This document shows positions 1,104-55,195 of a DNA stretch of 64,000 nt, piece by piece; positions within the stretch are counted from its first letter, which is position 1, and the number at the start of each line of letters is the position of its first letter. The position numbers were made by a program, and so were the translations under genes. This stretch comes from Beroe forskalii (taxonomy: Eukaryota; Ctenophora; Nuda; Beroida; Beroidae): assembly GCA_011033025.1 (NCBI GenBank), contig WFMF01000269.1:174266-238265 (forward strand). Reading direction: 5' to 3'. The notes under the pieces are model-generated. The model was given only the letters and a program-made list of their open reading frames with translations, was not told the origin of the DNA and made no database searches.

Positions 1104-1675
1104 AGTACCAGTTAGAACGGTTAAATTTGAGTTGTTCTAACCCATCTACCGTTTCAGTACCAGTTAGAACTGTTGAAGTTGATGTGTTCTAATGCCTCCA
1201 CTGTTTCAGTACCAATTAGAACGGTTAAAGTTGATGTGTTCTAACCCCTCCACTGTTTCAGTGCCAGTTAGAACGGTTAAAGTTGATGTGTTCTAACTCT
1301 CCACCGTTTCAGTACCAGTTAGAACGGTTAAAGTTGATGTGTTCTAACTCATCCACGGTTTCAGTACCAGTTAGAACGATTAAAGTTGATGTGTTCTAAC
1401 CCCTTTACTGTTTCAGTACCAGTTAGAACGGTAAAAGTTGATGTGTTCTAACCCCTCCACTGTTTCAGTGCCAGTTAGAACGGTTAAAGTTGATGTGTTC
1501 TAACTCTCCACCGTTTCAGTACCAGTTAGAACGGTTAAAGTTGATGTGTTCTAACCCCTCTACTGTTTCAGTACCAGTCAGAACGGTTAAAGTTGATGTG
1601 TTCTAACCCCTCTACTGTTTCAGTACCAGTTAGAACGGTTAAAGTTGATGTGTTCTAACCCCTCTACCGTTTCAG
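1104..1675 (+). repeat. Minisatellite built from a 3' splice site and exon start
   Basis: Eleven tandem units of about 52 bp sit directly before the SPOP-like exon. Each carries a pyrimidine stretch, TTTCAG, then a near-copy of the first 30 nt of the exon (TACCAGTTAGAACGG...TTGATGTG), then TTCTAAC. In the real exon TTGATGTGT and TCTAACC are separated by 15 extra bases between short GTGT repeats, so the unit looks like the exon start with a 15-nt deletion, amplified by slippage. Most units keep the AG, so each is a potential decoy acceptor. Confidence 0.9.
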
Positions 1676-1818
1676 TACCAGTTAGAACGGTTAAAGTTGA
1701 TGTGTGAGGAGGCGCTGTGTTCTAACCTGACGGTAGAGAACGCCGCAGACACTCTGATCCTAGCGGACCTCCACTGCGCCGAGCACCTCAAGGAAATGTG
1801 TATCAACTTCATCAACAG
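1676..1818 (+). CDS. SPOP: SPOP-like BTB protein, penultimate exon (BTB end and BACK start)
   Basis: SPOP proteins are substrate adaptors of cullin-3 ubiquitin ligases: the MATH domain binds substrate, and the BTB and BACK regions bind CUL3 and dimerise. This 143-nt exon follows TTTCAG and translates to [18 protein letters not shown], then VENAAD, LILADLH and FIN. This matches the SPOP stretch around ALERLK, MCE-ALCSNL and ILADLH nearly residue for residue. It ends AAC AG before GTACAT (phase 2) and joins exactly to the exon at 8,463, giving FINSHVSEVMET against FINYHATDVLET in SPOP. The MATH and most BTB exons must lie left of the window. Orthology to SPOP rather than SPOPL or a lineage-specific paralog cannot be settled from this part. 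Confidence 0.9.
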
Positions 1819-4800
1819 GTACATTCACTATACACTGTACTGGTGAATACTGTATAAACATTATACATTGTATAATTGTATATAGTGTATACTTATTACT
1901 TAATAAGTATAACACAAAATTTTACAATAGGTTGATAAGATATACACTATACAGGTATAGTCTTTACAGGTGTCAGGTATAGTCTATACAGGTACACTAG
2001 TACACGGCTCAGGTATACTTTATACAGGTTCATTTGTACACGGCTAAGGTACCTGGTACACTGTACAGCAACTTGTAAACTGTTCGTTTTCCTGTAAACA
2101 TCAACTTCAACAACAGACCTATACTGCTAGGTATTCATTCTACAGGTATCAGTTAAAAGGTTTGTTTGTAAGAATGTATTTTATCAATGATTACCTGTGA
2201 CAGTTAGAACTTTCTGTTTTTGTTCATCGACACTGTTACGTATTGTGTCAGTATGCAGACATCCCAATTCATCAAAAGTTTCTTTGTGCCTCGTGTCATG
2301 CTGGTTCCTTGTGTACACACGTACACTCTGTTTGTTTGTAAACATCAACTGCAGTCTTCATCAACAAGTTACTTCATACTTAAGTTTTGTTGTGAACTCA
2401 GGCTGGACTTCACAGGGTGTTTCAAGACTCGTGTATACAGCTTATCAACGGTTCTGTCAACGTTCACATCACTCCATTCCTGTATGTTTGTGTGTGTCCA
2501 CAGTCCACACTGATTACAATGTACTGCTGCTCATACGTGATCACCCCATCAGAAAACAATGCTGACGACAGTACGTGTTTTCTACCCCACTGAACCAAAC
2601 AGATAACCATGAGACGATGTGTTTTCATACAAACATACATACAAACACGCTGTCACCGTGTGACATATTGCCATCACGCACACCTTATCTTAATCACAGT
2701 TCACACACTGAACCACTCATTGTCATGGTACATTTGACATCAGAAGATTGAAGGATAAACATCGCATACATCTTATCTCACGAGCACACGGAACCTCTCA
2801 TGATTCATCAGTGTCACACATACAGACTCCGGTTGTAGAAACGCGAATACTGTACACTGTACAGTGCATAAGTTCAGGAGCTCATGGTTTTCAAGAAAGA
2901 TACATTCGGATTTGAGTGCCGCTTGGTTGATTTATGGGTGGTACGGGCTGGCACAACCTTTATAGCGTACTTCTTGAACCATTCGTCTCTGAATTCTTAT
3001 GATTCTGGATCAAAAGCAAATCAAATATTTCTTTGGTATAATTATATGAATTAAGATCGATTCTTTCGTGACTTAACGTCTGAAATGTCATGTTTCCTGT
3101 AGTACTGAAGAATGAAGCTCAATTTTCGGTCAAATTATTTTGTTCCAGTTCTCGAGATTCTAATCTAAAAGATACAACAGAGCATTATAATATCATCCTC
3201 AGCGACGCAACATGCTTCAATAATTACCCACGTTATTTTTACAGACTTCAGACTCATGGACTGTACAATAATTTTACAACATGCCACCTTACCGCGCCGG
3301 CAGCTTCACATTTTATTCATTCCTTGTGCAGGAAACGGGATGCATTTTATCGTCACCAGCCGACCAGTTTGAAGCATGATAATGGCATCACTCCTTGATG
3401 CGTGGAGGCTGCTTTAAATTTTATACTAAGAAATTCTCTCCAGTTCTACCAGAACTTCCTGCAATTAACTCGTATAATCAGCTCAGTTAAGCACACACAC
3501 AGACACACACACACGCACACACATTCATAATAATAATATTTATAATAAAGTGGTAGTGAGAGTAGTAAAGTGTTAATTTCACTCCTAGTGGCAATACAAC
3601 ATAACTCCTCTCTACTTCATTACTCTATTAACTATAATACAGCTCCCCCTTCTTTCTAGGTTGTTCCGCGTAAAAAGAGCTTCAAGAACTCTAATGTATT
3701 GGGCATATACGGGATGGTTTTAATTAATTTACACCGTGTGTATGTTATTTACTGTGTTTTTCTAGTGAAAGTTGGTCGGTGAAAAGGCTCCCCTGTCACC
3801 TAATAAATGACCTAGTACACAGAGGATGGTAATGTTAGTAATACCTGGTGTTTAATGTACACACCAAAATATTATACCCCCTAAATGGGGTGTTTAATCG
3901 CCCCACACAGGCTCTTTGGGGTTTGGTGTTGTTAAATGATGTGTAGGATTTATTCATTTGAGTTAATGTGACATTAAACCCCCGGTTGATGGAATGAATT
4001 AATGAATTTGAAATCAATCAATTCGACTTAAGTATAATAATTATTCTGATAGATTAGAGTAGCCCTGCTTTATCTGAAAGCTTTTGTATTTGAGATCATC
4101 TGCTCGAAACTAATTTACGGCAAAACGTGCGAATTTGATTTGCTGCAATTAGGATAGCACAAATTGATGTCAATGATCTTGTTATCATGGACTTTTAAAT
4201 TAATATGAATTTACATTGTGTGCCTCGTCACTATACAAGCGGGATTGAATTTATTTGATTACACAAGTGTCAAGTAATGCACTGATGAAATGGCAGTATT
4301 CTAAATCCAGGTAATCGTGGAATGACAGTCAACTGAACCAGTGAAACATGCTGTCACCTGGACTAAATAAATTCAAATTTTATAGCAGTATCACTTTACT
4401 GAAGATATATTATTTTATGAGTACTTGATGAGTACTTGATATAAAATATGATTCCACCAAACGTAGGATACGTTACGAATTTAGGGAGGTGTTTACAGAT
4501 AGTTGAGTAGTCCTGATGACACTGATATTATGGCGATAGAGCCCAATATGGCGATAAAACCCGACCGGTGTATTAAATGAGTTGCATACATTATACACTT
4601 ACATTATACACAATATGATACACATTAGAACTATACATTTTACATCGCCAGATAAGTAGATAGTGACTGGTGTAGAGATTTACTGTGTACACCGACCATA
4701 CCGAGTGTTGGAGTGCCGCAGATTGCAGATTGTGGCACACTGTTAGTGGACTGTGTAATGTGTGCACTCAATTCAATCACACACACACACAAAAACCACA

Positions 4801-8337: not shown

Positions 8338-8462
8338 GTATTCGGAGCGTACCTCTCTAAATCTACCCGTATATAGTATCTCTCTAAATCTCCCCGTATT
8401 TCAGTCACGTGATTGAGGTTATGGAGCGTACCTCTGTCCTCTCTAAATCCTCACTATTTCAG
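8338..8462 (+). repeat. Duplicated 3' splice site and exon start before last SPOP-like exon
   Basis: A unit of about 58 bp is present in one full decoy copy plus shorter pyrimidine-rich pieces. The decoy is TTTCAG at about 8,399-8,404, followed by a copy of the exon's first 22 nt (TCACGTGATTGAGGTTATGGAG). It then returns to the pyrimidine tract before the real TTTCAG at 8,457-8,462. The shared 'cgtacctct..ctctaaatc' pieces at 8,346-8,396 show further copying of the tract. Confidence 0.8.
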
Positions 8463-8619
8463 TCACGTGAGTGAGGTTATGGAGACAGCCGGCTGGAAGA
8501 TCCTCTGCAACCATTCCCACCTACTGGCGGAGGCTTTCAAAGCCCTCGCCGCCATCCAGGCGCCCCACATGTCCATGCTCATGCCGCCCAACAAAAAGAG
8601 GAAAAAACTCGGTGAGTGA
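8463..8619 (+). CDS. SPOP: SPOP-like BTB protein, last coding exon
   Basis: This exon gives the end of the BACK-like helices and the basic C-terminus. It reads VMETAGWKILCNHSHLLAEA, FKALAAIQAPHM and ends PPNKKRKKLGE before TGA at 8,617-8,619. The SPOP family ends in the same way, with ETSGWK, HPHLVAEAYRSL and a short nuclear-localisation-type tail (PPRKRLKQS). I therefore read the TGA as the true stop, although GGTGAGTGA also looks like a splice donor at the same place. The phase-2 start fits the exon at 1,676-1,818. The lysine-rich end is probably a nuclear localisation signal, by analogy with SPOP. Confidence 0.88.
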
Positions 8620-8760
8620 CCATCGTAATTTTAATAAAAAGAGGGAAAAAAGTAGGTGAGTAACCGTCGTTATTTTAACAAAAAGAGGAAAGAGCTCTGT
8701 GAGTTACAGTAGTGAATTAAAAAAAGTGGGAAAAAACTCGGTGAGATGCCGGTGTAAATA
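8590..8760 (+). repeat. Tandem repeat seeded on the stop codon region
   Basis: About four diverging units of roughly 44 bp, each starting with an A-rich and GAGGAAAAA tract followed by CTCGGTGAGTGA-like sequence. The first unit is the coding end (KKRKKLGE and stop). The later ones lie in the 3' untranslated region and decay with distance. Confidence 0.7.
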
Positions 8761-8922
8761 TTTAAATTATTTGATGTGAAATCTTGATATTATATGAAAT
8801 CTTGTACAATCTTGAATGTGATAATTGTATTGTAATATTATGAGATTATGGCATTGCCGTGGCCCTGTCAACCCTAGGGCAATGTTCTTTGCCCGTCCCA
8901 GTCTTAAGATAATCGCGAGTAA
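8761..8922. other. Short spacer
   Basis: Probable 3' UTR and spacer of the SPOP-like gene, followed by a GC-richer patch. No feature recognised. Confidence 0.3.
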
Positions 8923-9120
8923 CAGTGACGTAGCCAGAGGTTATAATGCAGGATACTGGATATGCATTGCAATTGCACACCCTGAAAAAGTACCTTGCAT
9001 AGTCTTGAATTTTGTGAACATATCTGCGTAATCATAGCTGATTAGGATTTTGACTGAGAAAATTTCCCCACCCTGGAAATGTTTTGCATTCCCTGATGTC
9101 AAACCCTGGCTACGTTACTG
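8923..9120. mobile_element. MITE with CAGTGACGTAGCCAG ends
   Basis: A 198-bp segment bounded by inverted termini. The left end is CAGTGACGTAGCCAG and the right end is CTGGCTACGTTACTG, which pair with one mismatch. It has no coding capacity. The terminal motif closely resembles that of the element at 39,118-39,300, so both probably belong to one superfamily of DNA transposon derivatives. Confidence 0.75.
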
Positions 9121-24945: not shown

Positions 24946-26814
24946 TCTAGTGTGACACTTTCGACAAAGTCTCAAACGGGTTCTTTAAATTTACAATTAT
25001 GCTTCGCGCTAGGCAACACTGCTAGTTAGAGAAATGATAAGAGAGTTAGGAAAGTCATATACACGGCAGATCGTTACTCAAATCCATATTACTGATGGCA
25101 ATAAAAAGTATACCCTCGACGGCTAAATGCTCAGAATATTTCTGTCGTGTATTATTCATATTATTATTGATATGATCATTTGGAAATGCTGTTAATTGTG
25201 CTGAAAGTGATGTGGTAATCGTGTGGCAGCGATCTGTAAAATCACTTGCCACAATTATAAGCCGCCTGGTACAGAAACTATCAGCTATTATATTTGCTAC
25301 GACGATAACAACACCCACACTTCTTCTTAGCTCAACAAATCACCACGGAGCATCCCACAAATCCTACCCATTGATAGGCCGAACCATACGTACTATATGG
25401 GTAAACTGATGTTCGACACTCCGTAATCTCAGTATATCGCCAGCTATAAGTACAATAGTGATACTCGGTGCTAGGCATTAAGTGAAGGTACTTACACGAT
25501 GAGAAGCTACATATATATTTATAACACACGAAATAAGGACTCTCCCTCCACCAGCAACCATTATATGTTATACAAATCCTGGTAGTGGCGTTCCACTAAC
25601 GACACAACCCGGCCTCTACAAAATATATATATATATATATATAAACACGGCCTATATAAAATATATAATGTGGGGTGGGATCTAAAATAGAATTCTCAGG
25701 AGAATATATTATCATACAGTGCATGCAGCTAGCCTGGCGCACACTAAATGTCAGTAGCTCGTAATGTGTTCCCCTCTATAATTGCACTGTTAGAACCACG
25801 GCATAGGGTCAAATTGCCTGCGAATAGTGGATTTATCGGTGTCAATTAGAGCTATGTGTGATGAATCTTATTCATTGAGCTGATATATTCCCAGGCGGTT
25901 GAGATGACGTCATTATCTTGGCAAGATGTAGTGAGTTCACGTTGAACCACTTGGTTTGAGGGCTCAGGTTTTGATGATGACATATCCGTGTACAAAAAAA
26001 TAGGCATTTCATTTTCAACGTCAAGTATTGACTACTCTAAACGATCATAAGGCAACTGTCAGTTAATCTTTCACTTAGGGTTATAAGCTTCCTTGTCCAA
26101 GCTTCCTTGTTCAAGTCAGACAAAGCTGCTGATGACTCTTGTAAAAGTAATTTTATGAGAATACTGCTGCTATTAAGCACTTTGGAGTCCAAATGCTCAC
26201 AGCAATCGAATCATAATACTCTGAGCAATTAAATAGTTGTGAGCAAGCAAATAGTTCTGGTACATATAGGATCGACTCCATTGGGCGACGACACCATCAA
26301 CTTGCAAGCGATCAAAGAAACTATTCACATACTTTGGAAAAACTAAAATTTGTTACTTCCATTTCGACATTGGTCATATACAGCAATAGAAATTGGTGAA
26401 GGTCAATTTATATCGTCTAACGTGTTATCATGAATTTTATGTTCAACAATGCACTTACCTAACCGAATATATAAAGTTTTTCTGCGGCATTCATAAGCAT
26501 TTATAATGATGATTAATCTCTGGTGCTATAAATCAAGACTTTTAAAGCACACATTTAAAAACAATGTTCAGAGTTCACTCAAAATCACAAGCCGTGTGCG
26601 CCTACAATTTACATTGCTGCTCAGGGATCGTTCACATAAGCACATATTACCTAATTACTTAATCATCTAGGTGCCATGGAGGAGGTGTTTTCAAGTTCAT
26701 ATGATTAACGCGAGGGGTTTCGGTGGTTGATAATGTTATCAAAATATCAAATTTTGGACGCAATTTCCGAGATTCTGGCCTCAAATTCTCCGTATTTTTT
26801 TGGCCAAATTGACA
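24946..26814. other. Intergenic, with TA microsatellite and a third CRE mini-element
   Basis: Holds a (TA)n run at about 25,620-25,665 and a copy of AGGCGGTTGAGATGACGTCA near 25,893. No supported gene. Confidence 0.45.
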
Positions 26815-27850
26815 CCACTCTACAATCCTTGACATAACTTTCGATCCTTGACATCACTCATTATCCTTGTCATCACTCTAAAATCCTTGACATCACTCCA
26901 CATTCCTAGATACCACTCCACAATCCTTGACATCACTATTCACTCCACATTCCTTGACCCTTGACACCACTTCACAATCCTTGGCACCACTCCACAATCT
27001 TTGAAACCACTCCACAATCCTTGGCATCACTCCGTCTCCACAATCCTTATTATCACTTTCTGATCCTTGACATCATTCATTATCCTTGTCATCACTCTAC
27101 AATCCTTGACACAATTCCACAATCTATGACACCATTCCACAATCCTTGACATCACTGCTTATTCGTGACACCACTCCAAAATTTTTGACACAATTCCACA
27201 ATCCTCGGCACCACTCTACAGTCCTTGACATCACTCTACAATCCTTGACACCACTCTTTATCTTTGATATCACTCCTTATCCTTAACACCACTCCAGAAT
27301 CCTTGCCACCACTCTAAACTCTGTGAAATCAATCTTTATCCTTGTCATCACTTCTTATCTTTAACATCACACTTTATCCTTGACACCACTCCACAATCCT
27401 TAACACCACTCTACAATCCTCGGCACCACTCTACAATCCTTGACACCACTTGTTATCCTTGACATCACTTCTTGTCCTTGACATCACTTCACAACACTTG
27501 ACACCACTCCACAATACTTGACACCACTCCACAATCCTTGACATCACTTTCCATCCTTGACAACACTCATTTTCTTTGGGGATCGTTCACATATTACGTA
27601 ATCAATTTTTGGCCGATTTTAACCCCCCTCCCCCTCGTAATCAAGTTTACAATTTGTTACATTAACATGTGATCATTCGAAACCCCTCCCTCCCCTAGGT
27701 GATTACAATCCTTGACACCGCTCCAAAATCCTTGAAACCACTCCACAATCTATTTAACGCCATTCCATAATCCTTGGAATCACTCTTTATCCTTGACATC
27801 ACTCCACAATTATTGACATAATTCCACACTCCTCGACTCCACTGCACAAT
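26815..27850. repeat. Degenerate minisatellite, unit about 20 bp
   Basis: Roughly forty variants of CACTCCACAATCCTTGACAC, interrupted by unique sequence at about 27,575-27,705. Unit length and sequence vary, so this is an older array than the one beginning at 27,925. Confidence 0.8.
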
Positions 27851-27924
27851 CGACGGACGTTGCCCCGTCTCCTTATCTTCTGACTGGCATCATTCTGGAA
27901 TGCCTTGTAACACCACACTCCACA

Positions 27925-29470
27925 ATACGCGCGCACGTTGCTTGAAAAGCAATGCGCGCGCAAGTTTGTTAAAAAGCAATGCGCGCGCACGTTGCTTAAA
28001 AAGCAATGCGCGCGCACGTTGCTTAAAAAGCAATGCGCGCGCACGTTGCTTAAAAAGCAATGCGCGCGCACGTTGCTTAAAAAGCAATGCGCGCGCACGT
28101 CCCTTAAAGTTAAAAAGCAATGCGCGCGCACGTTGCTTAAAAGCAATGCGCGCGCACGTTGCTTAAAAAGCAATGCGCGCGCACGTTGCTTAAAAAGCAA
28201 TGCGCGCGCACGTTGCTTAAAAAGCAATGCGCGCGCACGTTGCTTAAAAAGCAACGCGCACGTTCCTTAAAAAGCAACGCGCACGTTCCTTAAAAAGCAA
28301 TGCGCGCGCACGTTGCTTAAAAAGCAATGCGCGCGCACGTTGCTTAAAAAGCAATGCGCGCGCACGTTGCTTAAAAAGCAATGCGCGCGCACGTTGCTTA
28401 AAAAGCAATGCGCGCGCACGTTGCTTAAAAAGCAATGCGCGCGCACGTTGCTTAAATAGCAATGCGCGCGCACGTAGCTTAAAAGCAAGGCGCGCGCACG
28501 TTGCTTAAAAAGCAATGCACGCACGTTGCTTAAAAAGCAATGTGCGCGCACGTTGCTTCCTAAAAAAGCGCGCCGCGCTTAAACTGGGCAATGCACGCGC
28601 ACGTTAAAGTTAAAAAGCAATGCGCGCACGTTGCTTAAAAGCAATGCGCGCACGTTTAACCCAAAAAGCAATGCGCGCGCACGTTGCTTAAAAAGCAATG
28701 CGCGCGCACGTTGCTTAAAAAGCAATGCGCGCGCACGTTGCTTAAAAAGCAATGCACGCGCACGTTGCTTAAAAAGCAATGCGCGCGCACGTTGCTTAAA
28801 AAGCAATGCGCGCGCACGTTGCTTAAAAAACAATGCGCGCGCACGTTGCTTAAAAAGCAATGCGCGCGCACGTTGCTTAAAAAGCAATGCGCGCGCACGT
28901 TGCTTAAAAAGCAATGCGCGCGCAAGTTGCTTAAAAAGCAATGCGCGCGCACGTTGCTTAAAAAGCAATGCGCGCGCACGTTGCTTAAAAACAATGCGCG
29001 CACGTTGCCGAGAAATCAGATCGGACACGTTTCTAAAAACAGTAATTAGCAATGCCCGCACGTTTCTAAAGAAAAGCAATGCTGAATGCGCGCGCACGTT
29101 GCTTCCAAAAACAAAGTGCGCAGGATGCTTCAAAGGGCAAAGCACGCATGTTGCTTCAACATTTAAAAAGCAAAGCACGCACGTTGCTTCAAAAGCAAAG
29201 CGCATATGTTGCTTCAAAGGGCAAAGCACTCACGTTGCTTCAAAAAGCAAAGCGCTCACGTTGCTTCAAAAAGCAATGCGCGCACGTTGCTTCAAAAAGC
29301 AAAGCGCTCACGTTGCTTCAAAAAGCAATGCGCGTACGTTGCTTCAAAAAGCAATGCGCGCACGTTGCTTCAAAGAACAAAACGCGCCCGTTGCTTCAAA
29401 AAGAAAAGCACGCACGTTGCTTCAAAAACAAAAAGAAAAGCACGCACGTTGCTTCAAAAAGCAAAGCGCA
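27925..29470. repeat. 27-bp minisatellite with alternating purine-pyrimidine core
   Basis: Over 50 units of GCAATGCGCGCGCACGTTGC plus TTAAAAA, highly uniform to about 29,000. From 29,090 they diverge into a TTGCTTCAAAAAGCAAAGCG form. The unit is an imperfect palindrome with a GCGCGCGC core, so it could form hairpins or Z-DNA. Because 27 is a multiple of three and the unit lacks stops, long repetitive frames are open in several frames on both strands; I regard these as artefacts. Confidence 0.92.
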
Positions 29471-38587: not shown

Positions 38588-38708
38588 AATGTGGATAAGG
38601 ATTAAGAAAGACGCTTACTTCATGTCAAAAATTTCTTGACCAATATAATAAATCGGTCAAGAAATTTTTGACATGAAGTAAGTATCTTCCTCAATGCTTA
38701 TCCACATT
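38588..38708. repeat. Long near-perfect hairpin
   Basis: Two 54-nt arms separated by a 13-nt loop. The inner 27 nt of each arm (TTCATGTCAAAAATTTCTTG and flanks) pair perfectly; the outer part to AATGTGGATAAGG has a few mismatches. The partner copy at 41,808-41,928 is slightly more mismatched. Confidence 0.85.
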
Positions 38709-41588: not shown

Positions 41589-43127
41589 GGACCCTTTGTT
41601 ATGCATTACAATTATAAGCTTATAATCACAGCCACACGTCGACTAAACTGACCAATGTAATGAAGTCTGCTTTCATCAACACTTAATACACCACAACACT
41701 AATAATAAAGGTTCAAGTCATTAATACTTTATTATTGGGAAAAGTAATGATGAGAGAGTTTAATACTGAATAAACATGGGGATATTATTGAATTACACAT
41801 GTTTGACAATGTGGATAAGGATTAAGGAAGATACTTACTTCATGCCAAAAATTTCTTGACCAATGTAATAAATCGGTCAAGAAATTTTTGACATAAAGTC
41901 AGTATCTTCTTCAATGCTTATCCACATTATTATTATCATAACCTCATCAAGAACACATTCCTACACAATCCAGCGCGCATAGAACCGTATGCCTATTGCC
42001 TATTGTCCAATTCAACTCAATCGTGTCAAAGAGAGAATATTTGTACACTACATAGCTTTGTTTGAGATTTAAATGTGGTGAGATGAATCTTAATCGTATG
42101 AGATAAGTGCAGTAGCAACAATGCGAGTCACTGAGTTTAGAACGCAGAGTCCAGAAAGCCCTTCTCTTTCCCATGCAGTGAGCATGGTATCATGAATCAA
42201 TATCTTTAGACCGGGGAGGAACGGGACTCTCGTCCTATTCGGGGGTCCCATGGGAGCGCTCGCCTCGGCCTCAAGCTCCCTCAGTCCCTCTCCTGGGCGC
42301 CGCCTTGCCCCCGCTGGCCCATCCCCCATCTAAAAGTACTAATACCATGAGGGCGGTGCCCGTAACGCCCAAACCGAGCGAGGACGTTGCACGGCACTCA
42401 AAAGAGGGTGCTTAAACGTTTAGAATGTACATCGTGTTGAGCAAAAATCGCAACAACTCGTTATCCTTTTCAACAATAGTAAGAAGGAGCCGGCTACCTT
42501 ATACCTATACTATTACTGCCTAGTTTTCTTTTGATTTTGATGGTAATCAGTAATCACGAATTGTATAGTAGTCATGGTTCACAAGGGAAGAAGACAATTG
42601 CATGTCCAGTGGAAATGTTCCTACGTCAAGAATCTGAACTCATAATTTCCATCAAAATCCTTGCCTGTTTACCTATCACACATTCGGCACCAATTCACAA
42701 AATGAACAATGTACTTTGTACCTAAATTGTACGATATCTAGCTGGAGAGTATAGTAGTGACAACATAATGAATACACTGGCAACAGTACAACAAACTTGC
42801 TCATAAGGAGATGCAAATGTATCACAGGAGTCCGTGATTACACACACATACAAGCACACATACACACTCACACTCACATTACACATAACAATTGAATGGT
42901 GATTTACAATCATTACGATAGCAGAATAGAACAATACGGGGCACTGATAAATCACGCTAGGTCCGGGAGAGATTATATAGTACGCTATTATATAATTTGG
43001 CCCTCTCATAACAAGTTCTGAAGGTCTCAGGAGTGAGGGAGTGCGCGGGAGTGGGGGGGGGAGGGGGGTAGGGGTTTGAAATAGGTGGGCATTCGGCAAG
43101 TCGAAGGTGTCTACTAGACACTGTCTA
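41589..43127. repeat. Long direct repeat, copy 2
   Basis: Partner of 38,369-40,077, lacking the MITE. It includes the hairpin at 41,808-41,928 and a short CA-rich run near 42,842-42,880. After TCTACTAGACACTGTCTA the two copies diverge completely. Confidence 0.85.
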
Positions 43128-45100: not shown

Positions 45101-46044
45101 TAAGCTCTGTAACATTACATGGAGTATTAAGGAAGCGAGCCGCGCAGCACGAACAGGGGTTGTGATGAGAATCAGGGTATGTGTCCCACATAAGTACAAC
45201 TCTGGTTGAGTGACGTCACAGACCTAAACGTCAATATTTTTGTATTGCCCTTAAATTACGTATGGTCGTACATATTAGCGCATTCAACATATTAGTGTAT
45301 TCAACATGTCCTTTGGCCGTGAGACTGTCGACCGCTGAAGCTTGAGCACACTGAAACGTCTCCTATTGAGGCAAAAAACAGACAGAGTATTAAAAATAAT
45401 ATATACTCAAGGCGTGAGACATGTGACTCCTTAATTCCACGAAAATGCGCGCAGAAATTGTTGTGCGCGGAAAATATGGTACTTTTTAAAGAAAAAGTGA
45501 TAATATTGCTAGTACTTTAGCACATATTACGTTTTCGTCCCATACAGGAAGAGACGAATTTCCTTTCAAACTCATACAAAATCATTCGACAATCATAACA
45601 GTTTATTTTACCAATTTTTAACATCTGATAATTGTTTGACATTTAACAATCATCCTTGAAGATTGAAATAGGGGCAAAACTCACGTGAATCTTTATCAAC
45701 CACGTCTGTTCCCCGTGATAACATGCTGATAATGCTAAGCTAATTAAATACCTGTCTTTGTTCATAGTCTTAAAAGCGATATTTCAAATATTAGCAACTT
45801 CAGATAACCTCATCTACTGTCGCAAATTCACCAAGAAAAACTTAAAAACAGATTTTAGCATAATCGAGCGCAAAATCAAATACATACGAATATTTCTGGA
45901 TCAGTAAAATCGTAATATTGTTGATATCATTATACTGAGTAACTCTCTCGTTACCATTTCATCCGATATTTATTATGAAAACAAGTTACAATTCAAACAC
46001 GTAATATACAATGATAAAACAGCAGTAGGCCTGGGGAGGGGTCT
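45101..46044. other. 3' flank of Arl8, AT-rich
   Basis: No gene seen. From about 45,929 the sequence duplicates 47,847-47,963 and includes the presumed Arl8 3' UTR, with a minus-strand AATAAA at 45,969-45,974. Confidence 0.4.
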
Positions 46045-46091
46045 TTATTTTTTGTTTTTATTCCGAGAGATTATCCACTGCATCGTGATAT
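46045..46091 (-). CDS. arl8: Arl8 terminal exon, distal duplicate
   Basis: On the minus strand AATTTAG precedes ATATCACGATGCAGTGGATA. Joined to the G carried from the exon at 48,757 it gives DITMQWIISRNKNKK and TAA, the Arl8 C-terminus (DITLQWLIQHSKSRR in vertebrates). It repeats the proximal terminal exon at 47,964-48,010, together with about 115 nt of 3' flank and the AATAAA. Both are intact, so either could be used; the proximal one has the better acceptor (TTCAG). Confidence 0.55.
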
Positions 46092-47590
46092 CTAAATTAT
46101 GCTTAATAAGATTGGGGGGGGGGGTGATATATCACTACATCGTGATATCTGAATTGGTGTTATTTAAGATAGGGGGTGAGATATCACTGCATCGTGATAT
46201 CTGCATTGGGGTTTATATAAGATAGGGGGGGGGGTGATATATCACTACATCGTGATATCTGAATTTGGGTTATTTAAGATATGGGGGGGTGAGATATCAC
46301 TACATCGTGATATCTGAATTTGGGTTATTTAAGATAGGGGGTGAGATATCACTACATCGTGATATCTGAATTGGGGTTATTTAAGATAGGGGGTGAGATA
46401 TCACTACATAGTGATATCTGGAATTGGGGTTATTTAAGATAGGGGTGAGATATCACTACATCGTGATATCTGAATTGGGGTTATATAGGGGGGGTGAGAT
46501 ATCACTGCATCGTGATATCTGAATTGGGGTTATTATTTAAGATGGGGGGTGAGATATCACTACATCGTGATATCTGAATTGGGGTTTATTTAAGATAGGG
46601 GGGTGAGATATCACTGCACGTGATATCTGAATTAGTTATTTAAGATAGGGGGGTGAGATATCACTACACGTGATATCTGAATTGGGGTTATTTAAGATAG
46701 GGGGTGAGATATCACTGCATCGTGATATCTGAATTGGGGTTTATATAAGATGGGGGGGGTGAGATATCACTACATCGTGATATCTGAATTGGGGTTTATA
46801 TAAGATGGGGGTGAGATATCACTGCATCGTGATATCTGAATTTAGGTTTATATATATAAGATGGGGGTGAGATATCACTACATCGTGATATCTGAATTTG
46901 GGTTATTTAAGATATGGGGGGGGGGGTGAGATATCACTGCATCGTTATATCTGAATTGGGTTTATATAAGATGGGGGGGTGAGATATCACTATCGTGATA
47001 TCTGAATTTGGGTTATTTAAGATGGGGGGGTGAGATATCACACGTGATATCTGAATCGGGATATTTGATGGGGGGGAGATATCACTGCATCGTGATATCT
47101 GGGGGTTTATATAAGATGGGGGTGAGATATCACTACATCGTGATATCTGGAATTGGGGTTTATATAAGATGGGGGGGTGAGATATCACTGCATCGTGATA
47201 TCTGAATTGGGGTTTATATAAGATGGGGGGGGGGTGAGATATCACTACATCGTGATATCTGAATTTGGGTTATTTAAGATATGGGGGGGGGGGGTGAGAT
47301 ATCACTGCATCGTGATATCTGAATTGGGGTTTATATAAGATGGGGGGGGGGTGAGATATCACTACATCGTGATATCTGAATTTGGGTTATTTAAGATATG
47401 GGGGGGGGTGAGATATCACTACATTGTGATATCTGAATTTGGGTTATTTAAGATAGGGGGGGTGAGATATCACTACATCGTGATATCTGAATTGGGGTTA
47501 TTTAAGATATGGGGGGGGGTGAAATATCACTACATCGTGATATCTGAATTGGGGTTATTTAAGATATGGGGGGGGGGGGTGATATTATTG
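46092..47590 (-). repeat. Minisatellite made of the Arl8 terminal-exon 3' splice site (distal array)
   Basis: Nearly thirty units of about 50-56 bp. In minus-strand sense each reads CCAATTCAG, then ATATCACGATGTAGTG, then ATATCTCACC and a C-run. The first 16 nt after the AG are the first 16 nt of the terminal exon with one C-to-T change. Each unit also holds a small palindrome (AGATATCAC...GTGATATCT) and a G-run on the plus strand. Confidence 0.9.
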
Positions 47591-47963
47591 ATATAATACC
47601 ACTAGAGTGCATATAACTGCAGTGCAATATCAGGGCGTATTGCACTCTCGTGATTTTATACGCTAATATAACTCCCCAGAAGTGATATTATTGCACTAAT
47701 ATGCACTCGGCTGACGCCTCGTGCACATTAGTGTACTAATCAACACTCGGCTTCGCCTCGTGTGATAAGTACACTTATTGGCACTCGGCTTCGCCTCGTG
47801 CAATAAGTTCAATAATACCACTATGCGTCGTTAAATTAGCGTATATTATTATACTGAGTAACTCTCTCGTTACCATTTCATCCGATATTTATTATGAAAA
47901 CAAGTTACAATTCAAACACGTAATATACAATGATAAAACAGCAGTAGGCCTGGGGAGGGGTCT
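47591..47963. other. Duplicated 3' flank plus CTCGGCTTCGCCTCG motif cluster
   Basis: At 47,700-47,810 the near-palindrome CACTCGGCTTCGCCTCGTG occurs three times among short AT-rich spacers. From 47,847 the sequence repeats 45,929 onwards, with AATAAA on the minus strand at 47,888-47,893, a plausible polyadenylation signal for the proximal terminal exon. Confidence 0.5.
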
Positions 47964-48010
47964 TTATTTTTTGTTTTTATTCCGAGAGATTATCCACTGC
48001 ATCGTGATAT
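47964..48010 (-). CDS. arl8: Arl8 terminal exon, proximal copy
   Basis: Preceded on the minus strand by AATTCAG. It encodes (D)ITMQWIISRNKNKK and a TAA at 47,966-47,964. The split aspartate codon is completed by the G at the end of the exon at 48,757. In Arl8 this segment forms the last helix of the GTPase fold. The exon is very short (47 nt) and sits between two arrays that copy its own acceptor, so correct recognition must depend on downstream exon sequence. Confidence 0.75.
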
Positions 48011-48490
48011 CTGAATTTGGGTTAATGAGATTGGGGGGGGGGGGTGAAATATCACTACATCGTGATATCTGAATTGGGGTAATTTAAGATGGGTGGGGGG
48101 TGAGATATCACTACATCGTGATATCTGAATTGGGGTAATTTAAGATGGGTGGGGGGTGAGATATCACTACATCGTGATATCTGAATTGGGGTTATTTAAG
48201 ATATGGGGGGGGGGTGAGATATCACTACATCGTGATATCTGAATTGGAGTAATTTAAGATGGGTGGGGGGGTGAGATATCACTACATCGTGATATCTGAA
48301 TTGGGGTTATTTAAGATAGGGGGGGGGGGTGAGATATCACTACATCGTGATATCTGAATTGGATTTATTAAGATGGGGGGGGGGGGTGAGATATCACTAC
48401 ATAGTGATATCTGAATTGGGATTATTAAAAATGGGGGGGGGGCGGGAGGGGTGAGATATCACTACATAGTGATATCTGAATTGGGGTTAT
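48011..48490 (-). repeat. Minisatellite made of the Arl8 terminal-exon 3' splice site (proximal array)
   Basis: About nine units of the same type as at 46,092-47,590, lying in the intron just before the proximal terminal exon, with longer G-runs on the plus strand. Confidence 0.9.
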
Positions 48491-48756
48491 AAAAGATTAA
48501 ACAAAAAAGAAATCATAATAGCAACAATCTGCAACACACAAGGGTAGAAACAAGGTAGGTTCTTCCCAAACTTGCCAACTTGGAAGTTCCCCAAGTTGGA
48601 GCAAATATTCATTTTGTGATGTATTATAAATGAGCACAAAATAAAAGTAGCACATCTTGCAATTGTATCATGATATTATCTCAATGAGGGGGGGGGGGGC
48701 AGGGGGTAAATAATCCGCTGTATGATGATATGAGAAAAGTGGAAATTGTACTTCAC

Positions 48757-48827
48757 CTAAATTATGCTTATCTTTGCAGGAGATGGAGTAGCAGGAAATG
48801 TCCCGATCTGTCACTAACTTCAACTCC
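48757..48827 (-). CDS. arl8: Arl8 exon with the G5 guanine-recognition motif
   Basis: A 71-nt exon between TTTCTAG and GTGAAG, phase-consistent on both sides (1 nt in, 1 nt out). It reads (M)ELKLVTDRDISCYSISCKDK then HNL. This aligns with Arl8 [24 protein letters not shown]; SCK is the G5 loop that contacts the guanine base. The residues after the leading Met (ELKLVT) differ from vertebrate Arl8, so this is a diverged orthologous stretch, but the core is unmistakable. Confidence 0.88.
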
Positions 48828-48914
48828 CTAGAAAATACTTCTTATTGGGGGAAGTGGCTAGGGCAATGTTCGATGTAATATGTCAAATTATATGTGACCG
48901 TTCCCTAATCCTAA

Positions 48915-49050
48915 CAAAATTACAGTGGCAGTTCTTACTGCAGTTTTGCGTGCGCGGCGTTAGTTTGCGTTGCCTTCAGACATGTCTTTACGCCGCGCAA
49001 ACTTACACCGCGCACACAAAACTGCAGTTCAAACCGTCACCGTAAAATTA
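48915..49050. mobile_element. Fold-back element inside an Arl8 intron
   Basis: The arms ACTGCAGTTTTGCGTGCGCG and CGCGCACACAAAACTGCAGT pair closely around a short loop, with looser pairing extending outward. It lies between the Arl8 exons at 48,827 and 49,168. Confidence 0.7.
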
Positions 49051-49167
49051 TAGTTATGCAATAGTGCCACACTACTGTATGTAACCATATGAGATGGGTC
49101 CTGTGAATTAACAGGACTCTTTAAAATGTTACATTCCAATCTTCTATGTAAAAAGCGTGTAACTTAC

Positions 49168-49250
49168 ATCTTATCAATGAGTTGGTTTTCGTCAAGAGAA
49201 TTAGGTAGATCCTTCTTATTGCCCAAAACAAGCACGGGAATGCCCACTAG
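49168..49250 (-). CDS. arl8: Arl8 exon with the NKxD guanine-binding motif
   Basis: On the minus strand CTCGCAG precedes CTAGTGGGCATTCCC. The exon reads [28 protein letters not shown], and ends AAG AT before GTAAGT. NKKD is the G4 motif that gives guanine specificity. The first 15 nt repeat the last 15 nt of the previous exon, so a join of the two strongest sites would duplicate LVGIP in the protein. It uses A/T-richer codons than the neighbouring exon at 50,013-50,180. Confidence 0.9.
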
Positions 49251-49319
49251 CTGCGAGAACAAATCGAATACTCATTCTCTAAGATAAATTTATTGTAGAT
49301 ACACTGGGAGTGTTCCCCT

Positions 49320-50008
49320 CTTCCAAACTATGACCCGGTAACACGTGACCCTGTGACCCGGTAACACGTGACCCTGTGACCCGGTAACACGTGCCCCTGT
49401 GACCCGGTAACACGTGACCCTGTGACCCGGTAACACGTGACCCTGTGACACGTGACCCAGTAACACATGACCCTGTGACCCGGTAACACATGACCCTGTG
49501 ACCCAGTAACACGTGACCCTGTGACCCAGTAACACGTGACTCTGTGACCCGGTAACACGTGACCCTGTGACCAGGTAACACGTGACCCTGTGACCCGGTA
49601 ACACGTGACCGTGTGACCCGGTAACACGTGACCCTGTGACCAGGTAACACGTGACCCTGTGACCCGGTAACACGTGACTCTGTGACCCGGTAAGACGTGA
49701 CCCTGTGACCCGGTAAGACGTGACCCTGGCCCGGCAACACGTGACGTGACCCGTGTAACACACCCTGTGAACCTGGTAACACATGACCCTGTTACCCGGT
49801 AACACATGACCCTGTGACCCGGTAACACGTGACCCTGTGACCCGGTAACACGTGACCCTGTGACCTGGTAACACGTGACCCTATGACCTGGTAACACGTG
49901 ACTCTGTGACCCGGTAACACGTGACCCTGTGACCCGGTAACACGTGACCCTGTGACCCGGTAACACGTGACCCTGTGACCCGGCAACACGTGACCCTGTG
50001 ACCCCCAC
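49320..50008 (-). repeat. 24-bp minisatellite filling the Arl8 intron
   Basis: Nearly thirty units of GTAACACGTGACCCTGTGACCCG. The array starts just inside the GTAAGT donor of the exon at 50,013 and fills almost the whole intron. It keeps open frames on the minus strand (for example 49,328-50,008) that are repeat read-through, not genes. Each unit contains a CACGTG palindrome. Confidence 0.92.
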
Positions 50009-50012
50009 TTAC

Positions 50013-50180
50013 GGGAATGCCCACTAGCTGCGGCTTTGCCAGGAGGTTGTGCAGCTCCTGCTTGCTGCCCTCCAGGCGCTCGTGGTCCGCAGCGTCCACC
50101 ATGTAGACTATGCAGGAGACACCCCTACAATACCGCTCCCACATGCTGCGGAACCGGGGCTGACCTCCGATATCCCACAA
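50013..50180 (-). CDS. arl8: Arl8 exon with switch II (WDIGGQ)
   Basis: Arl8 is a small GTPase of lysosomes that recruits kinesin-linked effectors and the HOPS tether. This 168-nt exon begins after CCTCAG and reads [20 protein letters not shown], then [20 protein letters not shown] and [16 protein letters not shown], ending before GTAAGT. WDIGGQ is the switch II (G3) signature of Arf/Arl proteins, and the WERYCRG continuation identifies Arl8. Identity to animal Arl8 is very high, implying a functional gene. Codons are GC-rich. The exon is bracketed by two minisatellites, and 99 nt of it are copied upstream at 50,303-50,401. Confidence 0.95.
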
Positions 50181-50800
50181 CTGAGGGGAGTTAGAGGGAG
50201 TGAGGGGAGTTAGAGGGAGTGAGGGGGAGTTAGAGGGAGTGAGGGGGAGTTAGAGGGAGTGAGGGAGAGTTAGAGGGAGTAAGAGGGGGAGTTAGAGGGG
50301 GAGTGGTCCGCAGCGTCCACCATGTAGACTATGCAGGAGACACCTCTACAATACCGCTCCCACATGCTGCGGAACCGGGGCTGACCTCCGATATCCCACA
50401 ACTGAGGGGGAGTTAGAGGAGTGAGGGGGGTTAGAGGGAGTGAGGGGGGTTAGAGGGAGTGATGGGGAGTTAGTGGGAGTTAGAGGGAGTGAGGAGGAGT
50501 GAGGAGGAGTGAGGGGGAGTTAGAGGGAGTTAAGGGGAGTGGGGGAGTTAGAGGGAGTGAGGGGGGTTAGAGGGAGTTAGAGGGAGTTAGGGGGAGTGGG
50601 GGAGTTAGAGGGAGTGAGGGGGAATTAGAGGGAATGAGGGGAGTTAGAGGGAGTGGGGAGTGAGGTGGATTGTGGGGAGTTAGAGGGAGTGGGTAGTTAG
50701 AGGGAGTGAGGAGGAGTTGGACGGAGTGTGGGGGAGTTTGGGGGAGTGGGGAGTTAAAGGGAATGGGGAGTTAATGTAATGGGGAGATAGGGCCCGGGGG
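50181..50800 (-). repeat. Pyrimidine minisatellite at the Arl8 switch-II acceptor
   Basis: On the plus strand this is a run of GAGTTAGAGGGAGTGAGGGG variants (about 20 bp). On the sense strand it reads CTCCCTCTAACTCCCCTCA, an expanded polypyrimidine tract ending at the real CAG. The embedded exon copy at 50,303-50,401 shows that exon and tract were duplicated together with a shift of 221 bp. Confidence 0.88.
50303..50401 (-). pseudogene. Truncated copy of the Arl8 switch-II exon
   Basis: The first 99 nt of the exon at 50,013-50,180, with its CTCAG acceptor, are repeated here with a single C/T difference ([10 protein letters not shown] ... VDAADH). The copy then breaks directly into the pyrimidine repeat and has no donor, so it is a decoy or dead exon. 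If its acceptor were used the message would run into repeat sequence. Confidence 0.92.
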
Positions 50801-51631
50801 TGTGTGGGGAGTACATCATGTGGGGGAAGATGAATAGTAATTAATGGGGGGGGGTTAAGTTGGGGGATAACGAGGAAACAATTCACGGAGAACAAATAAC
50901 CCTGCGTTACAGTACTGTGTGAATACATCACTCCATCAATTACCTGCTGTGTAACGTTACATTGTATTACTCAGAACATAATCTTAAACTTATGTTTAAC
51001 TCATCTGTTTGTAACTTACAACACAGAGACACAGCACCATGGTGTACTGTGTGAATAACACAAAGACACAAGGGGGACAGGTATTGGCTTGTATAATAAC
51101 TACAACAACTATTATTAATAGCTGTAGTTATCATAGTCGTCATTGTTGCGCCAATACCACTATTGGTGAACACACTTGTCACTTATAAGTAATACCACTT
51201 TTAATTAACTCATTATTAACAAACTTATGGCACTTTTGATAACACAATATCAAGAAGGCACCAGTGAAAGATCAGCATTGAGTTCAGTGAATGAAATGTC
51301 ACATGTAACAGCATGTCACATCTCATGTTAACTGTAGTCTATACATGAATCCTAAGTTGAATGTAGGTTGTGCTATACCGCATGTATTAAAAATCATCTG
51401 AATTGTCAGCAACACGTCATCTTAAGATCAATGATCATATTGATGGAAATTGGAAGTAGATCCTACTCTACTACTCTAGCGTCATCAGAAAAAAGTTACC
51501 AGATTGGTTCCAATTCCGGTTATCAAAATATACATGATACAAAGATATCATACAAAATAATTCATAATCTTCGTATAACCAAAATGATCACTCCAGTGCT
51601 GGAATCAATGGAGGGGGGGGGGTTTACTCAA
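50801..51631. other. Arl8 intron, AT-rich
   Basis: No feature recognised apart from the G-run next to the exon at 51,632 and the tail of the pyrimidine repeat. Confidence 0.4.
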
Positions 51632-51712
51632 CTTAATCGTAACGTTGCCCTTCGTGACTTTCCTCATGTTGAAGCCCACGGTGGGAATCATGTCCTCATT
51701 AAACTGTCCTGA
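51632..51712 (-). CDS. arl8: Arl8 exon with switch I (PTVGFNM)
   Basis: On the minus strand CCCCCAG precedes TCAGGACAGTTTAATGAG. The exon reads [20 protein letters not shown] then KGNVTIK, matching Arl8 across switch I; the Thr of PTVGF contacts the nucleotide-bound magnesium in this family. To join LWDIGG it must end AAG at 51,632, but the next bases are TTGAGT. The only GT is one base earlier (AA/GTTGAG), which would need the partner to begin with G. So no canonical GT-AG pair restores the frame as written. The preceding P-loop exon (GLQYSGKTT) is not found in the window. Confidence 0.9.
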
Positions 51713-54700
51713 CTGGGGGAAGAGGGAATCATTAAACTGCCCTGACTGGGGGAAGAGAGACTCATTAAACTGTCCTGACTGGGGAAAGAGACTCATTAAA
51801 CTGCCCTGTCTGGGGAAGAGAGACTCATTAAACTGCCCTGTCTGGGGGAAGAGAGACTCATTAAACTGCCCTGTCTGGGGGAAGAGAGACTCATTAAACT
51901 GTCCTGACTGGGGGAAGAGACTCATTAAACTGCCCTGTCTGGGGAAGAGACTCATTAAACTGCCCTGTCTGGGGGAAGAGACTCATTAAACTGCCCTGTC
52001 TGGGGAAGAGAGAATCATTAAACTGCCCTGTCTGGGGAAGAGACTCATTAAACTGTCCTGTCTGGGGGAAGAGAGACTCATTAAACTGCCCTGTCTGGGG
52101 AAGAGACTCATTAAACTGCCCTGTCTGGGGAAGAGACTCATTAAACTGCCCTGTCTGGGGAAGAGAGACTCATTAAACTGCCCTGTCTGGGAAGAGACTG
52201 CCATTAAACTGCCCTGACTGGGGGAAGAGACTCATTAAACTGCCCTGTCTGGGGGAAGAGACTCATTAAACTGCCCTGTCTGGGGGAAGAGACTCATTAA
52301 ACTGCCCTGTCTGGGGAAGAGAGACTCATTAAACTGTCCTGACTGGGGAAGAGACTCATTAAACTGTCCTGACTGGGGAAGAGACTCATTAAACTGCCCT
52401 GTCTGGGGAAGAGACTCATTAAACTGCCCTGTCTGGGGAAGAGACTCATTAAACTGCCCTGTCTGGGGAAGAGAGACTCATTAAACTGCCCTGACTGGGG
52501 GAAGAGACTCATTAAACTGCCCTGTCTGGGGGAAGAGAGACTCATTAAACTGCCCTGACTGGGGGAAGAGAGACTCATTAAACTGCCCTGACTGGGGAAG
52601 AGACTCATTAAACTGCCCTGACTGGGGGAAGAGAGACTCATTAAACTGTCCTGTCTGGGGGAAGAGACTCATTAAACTGTCCTGTCTGGGGAAGAGAGAC
52701 TCATTAAACTGTCCTGTCTGGGGAAGAGACTCATTAAACTGCCCTGACTGGGGAAGAGAGACTCATTAAACTGTCCTGACTGGGGAAGAGACTCATTAAA
52801 CTGCCCTGTCTGGGGGAAGAGAGACTCATTAAACTGCCCTGACTGGGGAAGAGACTCATTAAACTGCCCTGTCTGGGGAAGAGACTTATTAAACTGTCCT
52901 GTCTGGGGGAAGAGGGAATCATTAAACTGCCCTGTCTGGGGAAGAGAGACTCATTAAACTGTCCTGACTGGGAAAGAGACTCATTAAACTGCCCTGTCTG
53001 GGGGAAGACACTCATTAAACTGCCCTGACTGGGGGAAGAGACTCATTAAACTGCCCTGTCTGGGGAAGAGACTTATTAAACTGTCCTGTCTGGGAAGAGG
53101 AACATTAAACTGCCCTGTCTGGGAAGAGACTCATTAAACTGCCCTGACTGGGGAAAGAGACTCATTAAACTGCCCTGTCTGGGGAGAATAAACTGTCTAA
53201 ACTGACTCCTGACTGGGGAAGAGACTCATTAAACTGCCCTCCTGGGAAGAGACCATTAAACTACCCTGTCTAGGGGAAGAGAGACTCATTAAACTGCCCT
53301 GTCTGGGGAAGAGACTCATTAAACTGCCCTGTCTGGGGGAAGAGAGACTCATTAAACTGCCCTGTCTGGGGAAGAGACTCATTAAACTGCCCTGTCTGGG
53401 GAAGAGAGACTCATTAAACTGCCCTGTCTGGGGAAGAGACTCATTAAACTGCCCTGTCTGGGGAAAGAGACTCATTAAACTGCCCTGTCTGGGGAAGAGA
53501 ATCATTAAACTGTCCTGACTGGGAAGAGAGACCATTAAACTGCCCTGTCTGGGGAAGAGACTCATTAAACTGTCTGGGGTCTGGGGAAAGAGACTCATTA
53601 AACTGCCCCTGACTGGGGAAGAGACTCATTAAAAGTAAACTGCCCTGTCTGGGGAAGAGACTCATTAAACTGCCCTGTCTGGGGGAAGAGAGACTCATTA
53701 AACTGCCCTGTCTGGGGAAGAGACTCATTAAACTGCCCTGACTGGGGAAGAGAGACTCATTAAACTGCCCTGACTGGGGGAAGAGACTCATTAAACTGCC
53801 CTGTCTGGGGAAGAGACTCATTAAACTGTCCTGTCTGGGGAAGAGAGAGACTCATTAAACTGCCCTGTCTGGGGGAAGAGACTCATTAAACTGCCCTGAA
53901 TGTTAAAGAACTCATTAAACTGCCCTGTCTGGGGAAGAGACTCATTAAACTGCCCTGTCTGGGGGAAGAGACTCATTAAACTGTCCTGACTGGGGAAGAG
54001 ACTCATTAAACTGCCCTGTCTGGGGAAGAGAGACTCATTAAACTGCCCTGTCTGGGGAAGAGAGACTCATTAAACTGCCCTGACTGGGGAAGAGAGACTC
54101 ATTAAACTGCCCTGTCTGGGAAAGAGACATTAAACTGCCCTGTCTGGGGAAGAGACTCATTAAACTGTCCTGACTGGAAGAGACTCATTAAACTGCCCTG
54201 TCTGGGAAGAGACTCATTAAACTGCCCTGACTGGGGGAAGAGACTCATTAAACTGCCCTGACTGGGGGAAGAGAGACTCATTAAACTGCCCTGTCTGGGG
54301 AAGAGGGAATCATTAAACTGCCCTGTCTGGGGAAGAGACTCATTAAACTGCCCTGACTGGGGTAAGAGAGACTCATTAAACTGGCCTGTCTGGGGGAAGA
54401 GAGAGACTCATTAAACTGCCCTGTCTGGGGGAAGAGAGACTCATTAAACTGCCCTGTCTGGGGAAGAGAGAGACTCATTAAACTGTCCTGACTGGGGAAA
54501 GAGACTCATTAAACTGCCCTGTCTGGGGAAGAGAATCATTAAACTGTCCTGACTGGGGAAGAGACTTATTAAACTGTCCTGACTGGGGAAAGAGAGACTC
54601 ATTAAACTGCCCTGTTCAAAAGAGAGACTCATTAAACTGCTCTGTCTGGGAAGAGACTCATTAAACTGTCCTGTCTGGAAGAGAGACTCATTAAACTGCC

Positions 54701-55195
54701 CTGACTGGGGAAGAGACTCATTAAACTGTCCTGACTGGGAAGAGAGACTCATTAAACTGCCCCACTGGGGAAGAGAGACTCATTAAACTGCCCTGTCTGG
54801 GGAAGAGAGACTCATTAAACTGCCCTGTCTCAGGAAAGAGAGAATCACAAACTGTCCTGACTGAGAAGAGATATTAAACTGCCCTGTCTGGGGAAGAGAG
54901 ACTCATTAAACTGCCCTGTCTGGGAGAGAATCATTAAACTGCCCTGTCTGGAAGAGAGACTCTATTAAACTGCCCTGTCTGGGAAGAGACTCATTAAACT
55001 GCTCTGTCTGGGAAGAGACTTATTAAACTGTCCTGACTGGGAAAGAGACCTCATTAAACTGCCCTGTCTGGGGAAGAGAGACTCATTAAACTGCTCTGTC
55101 TGGGAAGAGATTTAAACTGTCCTGACTGGGAAAGAGAGAATCATTAAACTGCCCTGTCTGGGGAAGAGAGACTCATTAAACTGTCTGACTGGGGA
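51713..55195 (-). repeat. 3.5-kb minisatellite made of the Arl8 switch-I exon 3' splice site
   Basis: About 110 units of 28-33 bp. In the sense (minus) direction each is TCTCTTCCCCAG followed by (T/A)CAGG(G/A)CAGTTTAATGAG. The latter is the first 18 nt of the adjoining Arl8 exon (SGQFNE). Nearly every unit keeps the pyrimidine tract and AG. Repeating open frames reading [11 protein letters not shown] are simply this array. Confidence 0.95.

What the first reader, a model, noticed from the sequence alone, without database searches (positions are those of the whole stretch)
1104..55195. Minisatellites in two genes are amplified copies of their own splice junctions
In the SPOP-like gene and in Arl8, array units can be aligned base for base with the adjoining exon. 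They consist of a pyrimidine tract, AG, and the first 15-45 nt of the coding exon. Seen at 1,104-1,675 (SPOP-like), 46,092-48,490 and 51,713-55,195 (Arl8), with longer or fewer copies at 8,338-8,462 and 50,181-50,800. This is unlikely by chance and points to a shared mechanism, such as slippage or repair templated at 3' splice sites, or selection allowing growth only where a real acceptor is kept. From memory, unverified, exon-boundary 'mirage' minisatellites were reported in amphioxus. The clustering and scale here, with three consecutive Arl8 introns affected, may still be new.
Basis: partly seen in the sequence, partly recalled or inferred. Interest (0 to 1): 0.82.

Follow-up and report, generated by a model that had tools for sequence, protein, structure and literature searches.

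The report
Exon-edge minisatellites in a likely ctenophore
Short DNA repeats beside several exons really are copies of the exon's own edge, as once described in amphioxus, but in the exons sampled here such edges are not hit more often than ordinary intron DNA, so a special splice-site mechanism is not needed.

Summary
At four coding-exon starts in the window (two SPOP-like, two Arl8) array units hold pyrimidine tract + AG + the first 16-29 nt of the real exon: 12, 2, about 110 and about 35 copies. Arl8 exon 4 differs: a pyrimidine array containing one 103-nt exon copy.

The inference is not supported. On 124 splice boundaries of Ras/Arf/CCT exons, TRF arrays cross 4 (5.9 expected at random intron points) and 5 carry a spanning duplicate (11.2 expected; ratio 0.45, CI 0.08-1.15). 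Against this, arrays abutting an edge are in excess (8 against 3.1). One array sits on a stop codon. Most likely minisatellites arise everywhere and some straddle exon edges.

These equal the 'mirage' minisatellites published for amphioxus, here in a probable ctenophore.

Separately, some intron ends (Arl8, CCT genes) carry neighbour-exon sequence and lose GT or AG. I read this as RNA reads in the consensus; RNA-templated repair is the bold alternative.

The parts
1104..1705 (+). 3' splice-site array before a SPOP-like exon: 52-bp unit = CCTCCACYGTTTCAG + 29 nt of exon start + TTCTAACC (exon nt 45-52)
1676..1818 (+). SPOP-like coding exon ([25 protein letters not shown]..); acceptor TTTCAG|TACCAG, donor AACAG|GTACAT
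   Evidence: tblastn; Pfam BACK_BPM_SPOP
8338..8462 (+). short acceptor repeat before the next SPOP-like exon; exon-start copies at 8405 and 8463 (the real exon)
8463..8611 (+). next SPOP-like exon (HVSEVMETAGWK..KKRKKL)
   Evidence: tblastn; no Pfam family
8590..8757 (+). 5' splice-site array: 44-bp unit = exon end AACAAAAAGAGGAAAAAACTCG + GTGAGT + intron, about 3.6 copies, 77% matches; not in the finding
51695..55201 (-). array of about 110 units of about 31 bp = TCTCTTCCCCCAG + first 18 nt of Arl8 exon 3 (TCAGGACAGTTTAATGAG)
51632..51712 (-). Arl8 exon 3 ([27 protein letters not shown]); after AAG the sequence reads TTGAGTAAA, a canonical GT is missing there
50185..50773 (-). pyrimidine array (20-bp unit CTAACTCCCCCTCACTCCCT) before exon 4, interrupted by the exon copy below; ordinary units hold no exon sequence
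50299..50401 (-). 103-nt copy of the start of exon 4 embedded in that array
50013..50180 (-). Arl8 exon 4 ([27 protein letters not shown]), donor CCC|GTAAGT
49331..50004 (-). purely intronic 23-bp array starting 8 nt after the exon-4 donor; also present in L064
49236..49255 (-). junction patch: last 20 nt of exon 4 (CGCAGCTAGTGGGCATTCCC) stand directly before GTG CTT of exon 5; L064 has other bases in most of this place
49168..49250 (-). Arl8 exon 5 as the assembly reads, from the AG inside the patch
48757..48827 (-). Arl8 exon 6 (..KDKHNL, ends AAGCATAATTTAG|GTGAAG)
47986..48497 (-). array before terminal exon copy 1; unit holds TTCAG + ATATCACGATG(C/T)AGTG.. of the terminal exon
47964..48010 (-). 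terminal exon copy 1 (DITMQWIISRNKNKK stop)
46118..47574 (-). second array of the same unit (27 units)
46045..46091 (-). terminal exon copy 2, duplicated with its 3' flank
46092..46105 (-). junction patch seen by eye: TAAGCATAATTTAG, the last 14 nt of exon 6, directly before terminal exon copy 2 (copy 1 and L064 read TAACCCAAATTCAG)

Best explanation
These are mirage minisatellites. The genome makes short tandem duplications widely; arrays grow and shrink by slippage or unequal exchange (inferred). Where a founder duplication happened to straddle an exon edge, copies of the edge lie on the intron side and one intact edge stays on the exon (shown). Selection removes duplications that spoil the exon and tolerates those that keep one working edge (inferred). 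Splicing must then ignore up to about 110 look-alike acceptors and use the exon-proximal one, most simply by exon definition, i.e. pairing with the downstream donor (inferred, no RNA data). The splice site is not the cause.
For: Units contain exon edges far beyond chance. Both edge types are hit: acceptors, and donors at 8590, L006 and L041. An array of the last codons plus stop (SKQDTFQ*, three times) shows that an edge without splicing is hit too (L057). No excess at boundaries: TRF crossing 4 of 124 against 5.9, P(>=obs) 0.85 (first run 4 of 107 against 5.6); spanning duplicates 5 of 124 against 11.2 at random intron points, P(<=obs) 0.017, ratio 0.45, bootstrap CI over 34 loci 0.08-1.15; 11.3 when drawn from 2731 intronic pseudo splice sites. 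Background is high: about 157 array starts (TRF rows merged by 40-nt start bin) in 169 kb. Copy number differs between the two Arl8 copies.
Against: Arrays ending just outside the edge on the intron side are in excess: 8 against 3.1, P 0.01. I read this as arrays stopped by exons, or slippage in pyrimidine tracts, but a weak edge effect is possible. In the window genes plus L064 exon 2, 5 of 8 acceptors carry a spanning duplicate at the same threshold (SPOP x 2, Arl8 exons 2, 3, 7; not exons 4, 5, 6; exon 6 was scanned 9 nt off its place), far over the sampled rate, though chosen after looking; no donor there reaches the threshold, the array at 8590 scoring 16 against 17. The sample is 124 boundaries, and some of its exons are near-copies of each other (L024/L025, L039/L040), so an enrichment up to about 1.2-fold or 1.7-fold (Poisson limit, my arithmetic) is not excluded. 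No RNA data: correct splicing is assumed.
Confidence: 0.8

Rival explanations
1. Splice sites themselves provoke the duplications, by slippage or repair templated at acceptors, R-loops or spliceosome-linked breaks.
For: The cluster in SPOP-like and Arl8; arrays abutting edges 8 against 3.1.
Against: No excess of spanning arrays or duplicates at 124 boundaries; donors and a stop codon are hit as well.
Confidence: 0.07
2. The arrays are assembly artefacts.
For: Local consensus is poor: exon 4 in L064 is full of apparent errors and exon 3 is missing there; exon 2 was not found in the window; junction patches suggest that the consensus was altered.
Against: Two separately assembled Arl8 copies share the same unit families at the exon-4, intron-4 and exon-7 places with different copy numbers; units differ from each other by substitutions; similar arrays occur in unrelated genes on other contigs.
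Confidence: 0.08
3. The arrays are kept by selection because spare acceptors or donors help or regulate splicing.
For: Nearly all of the 104 exon-3 units aligned keep the AG (units were picked by an anchor, which favours conservation).
Against: Real boundaries carry spanning duplicates no more often than intron points; exon-3 unit lengths are not confined to multiples of three; the SPOP 5' array is decayed.
Confidence: 0.04

Closest known systems
'Mirage' minisatellites of amphioxus (Adh3, troponin C, globins BflGb6 and BflGb9, PGBD5)
   Same: Tandem units spanning intron-exon boundaries, at 5' and at 3' boundaries, length-polymorphic, units of 10-160 bp (passages of PMC3087553 and PMC3902484)
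   Different: Here a probable ctenophore; up to about 110 units; also at a stop codon; rate measured against intron background. Transcripts and somatic instability not tested here
Intron gain by tandem duplication (Rogers model; mirage-to-intron model of PMC3087553, passages)
   Same: Duplicated splice signals that could become new exons or introns
   Different: No new intron shown here
RNA-templated repair or cDNA gene conversion (recalled, no call)
   Same: Would write spliced exon-exon sequence into the genome, as seen at the junction patches
   Different: Patches are about 6-20 nt, remove GT or AG in some otherwise intact genes and differ between the two Arl8 copies, which fits consensus contamination better

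Membership tests
mirage minisatellite | tandem units that include an intron-exon boundary | tested here: met
mirage minisatellite | authentic boundary intact at the exon | tested here: met
   acceptors of both SPOP exons, Arl8 exon 3, exon 7 copy 1 and L064 exon 2 read pyrimidine-rich sequence + AG
mirage minisatellite | both 5' and 3' boundaries can be affected | tested here: met
   donor arrays at 8590, L006 and L041
mirage minisatellite | length polymorphism between alleles | tested here: inconclusive
   two Arl8 copies differ in unit number, but whether they are alleles or paralogs is not settled
mirage minisatellite | mRNA spliced correctly despite decoys | not testable with these tools
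   no transcripts held
splice-site-targeted duplication | excess of edge-spanning arrays over intron background | tested here: not met
   124 boundaries only

The most novel reading that the evidence does not exclude
Spliced mRNA or its cDNA is used as a repair template in this animal. It writes the tail of the previous exon, or the head of the next one, into intron ends (Arl8 exon 5 and terminal copy 2; CCT genes L065 and L066), and the same repair may seed exon-edge arrays.
Probability: 0.05. Interest if true: 0.85.

Novelty: new member of a known kind. Interest (0 to 1): 0.4.

Why it matters
It extends mirage minisatellites from amphioxus to what looks like a distant animal lineage and adds what the passages I saw of the amphioxus papers do not give: a background rate, by which the sampled exon edges are not hotspots. 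The Arl8 exon-3 array, with about 110 near-identical decoy acceptors before one real exon, is a natural test of exon definition. The junction patches warn that splice sites in this assembly should not be trusted base by base.

Tried and rejected
First suspicion that 46118-48497 is a transposable element: rejected, because its 3' flank encodes the Arl8 C-terminus and a genome search found it at three places only, the query included, all on this contig. Intron gain at exon 5: considered because of the 22-nt identity across the intron, but a like pattern recurs in CCT genes. Amphioxus: rejected in favour of a ctenophore. COX1 has in-frame TGA and appears to keep AGA=Arg and ATA=Ile (judged by eye against COX1 motifs recalled from memory), and an iGluR (L063) has ML032222a as best PDB match (that ML means Mnemiopsis leidyi is recalled). 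It is not Mnemiopsis itself by this test, best identity 47%. Against the ctenophore reading, another iGluR, L061, had vertebrate kainate receptors as best PDB matches. A fold-back at the window start: no long inverted repeat there. Exon 2 in the window: not found, best 13 mismatches of 31. Unit-column variation is biased by its anchors. In one search minus-strand loci were modelled unturned; one search corrects this and only and later are used. Paper searches for minisatellites or tandem repeats in ctenophores listed nothing relevant (listings only). Passages of the Hormiphora genome paper (PMC8527503) bear on another, 110-Mb assembly.

Full report
What the window is. The window is the last 64 kb of a 238,265-base contig (C324) of a 216-Mb eukaryotic assembly. 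COX1 lies on a separate contig, has in-frame TGA and, judged by eye against motifs I recalled, keeps AGA as Arg and ATA as Ile. One glutamate receptor (L063) has ML032222a, a ctenophore protein as I recall, as its best PDB match; the best match of that protein anywhere in the genome is 47% identical. Another receptor (L061) matched vertebrate kainate receptors best. I take the animal to be a ctenophore other than Mnemiopsis leidyi, with moderate confidence.

Observation. Exon-edge sequences recur 12, 99 and 33 times (up to 2 mismatches, real exons included) where shuffles give about 0. The SPOP unit carries 37 nt of exon with a 15-nt deletion between TGTG repeats. The Arl8 terminal-exon unit carries about 25 nt: the first unit in L064 still reads ATATCACTATGCAGTGGATAATCTC, and the common unit has lost two bases of it, which makes it a near-palindrome.

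Second Arl8 copy. A DNA search finds a second Arl8 on the same contig, inverted, about 87 kb away, read as L064. In four stretches outside the arrays substitution identity is 96.0-99.4%, gaps set aside. By eye and TRF it shows exon 1, exon 2 with a 35-bp x 7 acceptor array ending in exon sequence, the same pyrimidine and 23-bp arrays, and one terminal exon with fewer units, split by two insertions. It lacks exon 3, and its exon 4 looks like poor consensus. Other gene pairs in inverted orientation on one contig were seen (C558, C44, C225, C370). Alleles misjoined into one contig, or true inverted duplicates, are both possible.

Is the splice site a hotspot? I took exons found by Pfam Ras, Arf and Cpn60_TCP1 matches, picked from the hit lists for being multi-exon, not for repeats; one region (L041) includes a locus whose arrays I had already seen (L036), but the array that counts there lies outside that locus. 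Of the 38 loci returned by the first two searches I used 12, leaving out single-exon genes and loci covered by a fetched region; with 54 exons in 20 fetched regions and 13 in two CCT loci this gave 79 exons. Splice sites were placed by a simple score near the match ends. Of 158 possible boundaries 124 passed (66 acceptors, 58 donors) and 34 were dropped. TRF arrays cross 4 (L042 and L032 acceptors, L041 and L006 donors) against 5.9 expected. A more sensitive test asks whether the 20 nt around the boundary recur with at least 17 matches within 12-200 nt on the intron side: 5 of 124 (the same four and the L006 acceptor) against 11.0 at random intron points and 11.3 at pseudo splice sites, and 11.2 in a larger resampling. 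At thresholds 16, 17, 18 and 19 the counts are 6, 5, 5 and 3 against 12.8, 11.2, 9.5 and 7.3, P(<=obs) 0.012, 0.017, 0.062 and 0.045. There is no enrichment; depletion is suggested but the bootstrap interval over 34 loci reaches 1.15. Against this, arrays that end just outside an edge are in excess, 8 against 3.1, P 0.01. Arrays that cannot run through exons would give this, but a weak edge effect is not excluded. In the window genes and L064 exon 2 the rate is 5 of 8 acceptors, a cluster chosen after looking. One more array repeats the last codons and stop of a Ras-like gene (L057), an edge without a splice site.

Mechanism. The simplest account is general minisatellite turnover (about 157 array starts in 169 kb) plus selection that keeps one good edge. 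The spliceosome must choose the exon-proximal acceptor among many; exon definition would do this. That step is inferred, since no RNA data are held.

Known or new. Passages of PMC3087553 (amphioxus globins, 2010) and of the PGBD5 paper (PMC3902484) describe the same structures in amphioxus, at both boundary types, with a model for intron gain. Searches for minisatellites or tandem repeats in ctenophores listed nothing relevant, in a library that lacks most subscription papers. So this is a new instance of a known kind, with a background rate added.

Junction patches. Before GTG CTT of window exon 5 stands CGCAGCTAGTGGGCATTCCC, the last 20 nt of exon 4; L064 reads CACACATATTTCTCATTCCC there, without an AG. 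Before terminal exon copy 2 stands the last 14 nt of exon 6, where copy 1 and L064 have array sequence (by eye). After exon 3 the assembly reads TTGAGT; GTGAGT is what I take to be the original, and exon 4 starts TTG. Among 53 exon pairs compared (pairs less than 90 nt or more than 8 kb apart left out), 3 of 11 in the two CCT loci show the like: exon tail before the next exon (L066), or head of the next exon at the donor (L066, L065, the latter without GT); 1 of 5 in window Arl8 has the 22-nt run; in the other 33 Ras/Arf pairs no shared run exceeds 7 nt. Short overwriting on either side of the junction, with GT or AG lost in otherwise intact genes, fits RNA reads used in making or polishing the consensus. 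That is my inference; I did not find the assembly's methods. RNA-templated repair is the bold alternative.

Noticed in passing
window 49236-49255, 46092-46105, 51631; L065 and L066 introns: Intron ends carry spliced neighbour-exon sequence, some losing GT or AG; probably RNA reads in the consensus.
   Followed up: partly
C324:125500-133700 (L064) and window 45900-51712: Inverted second copy of Arl8 on the same contig about 87 kb away; similar inverted gene pairs on C558, C44, C225 and C370.
   Followed up: partly
L064:646-1740: Open frame beside Arl8 with ABC_ATPase (PF09818) and ABC_N (PF20446) domains; its origin in an animal genome was not examined.
   Followed up: no
L057:3534-3642: 39-bp x 2.8 perfect array repeating the last codons and stop codon of a Ras-like gene.
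   Followed up: yes
window 26809-29469: Large arrays (20-bp TTGACACCACTCTACAATCC; 27-bp with GCGCGCACG); whether they touch an exon was not examined.
   Followed up: no
window 38588-38708 and 41808-41928: Two 121-bp imperfect palindromes (each about 86-88% self-complementary) that are about 87% alike, perhaps a small mobile element.
   Followed up: no
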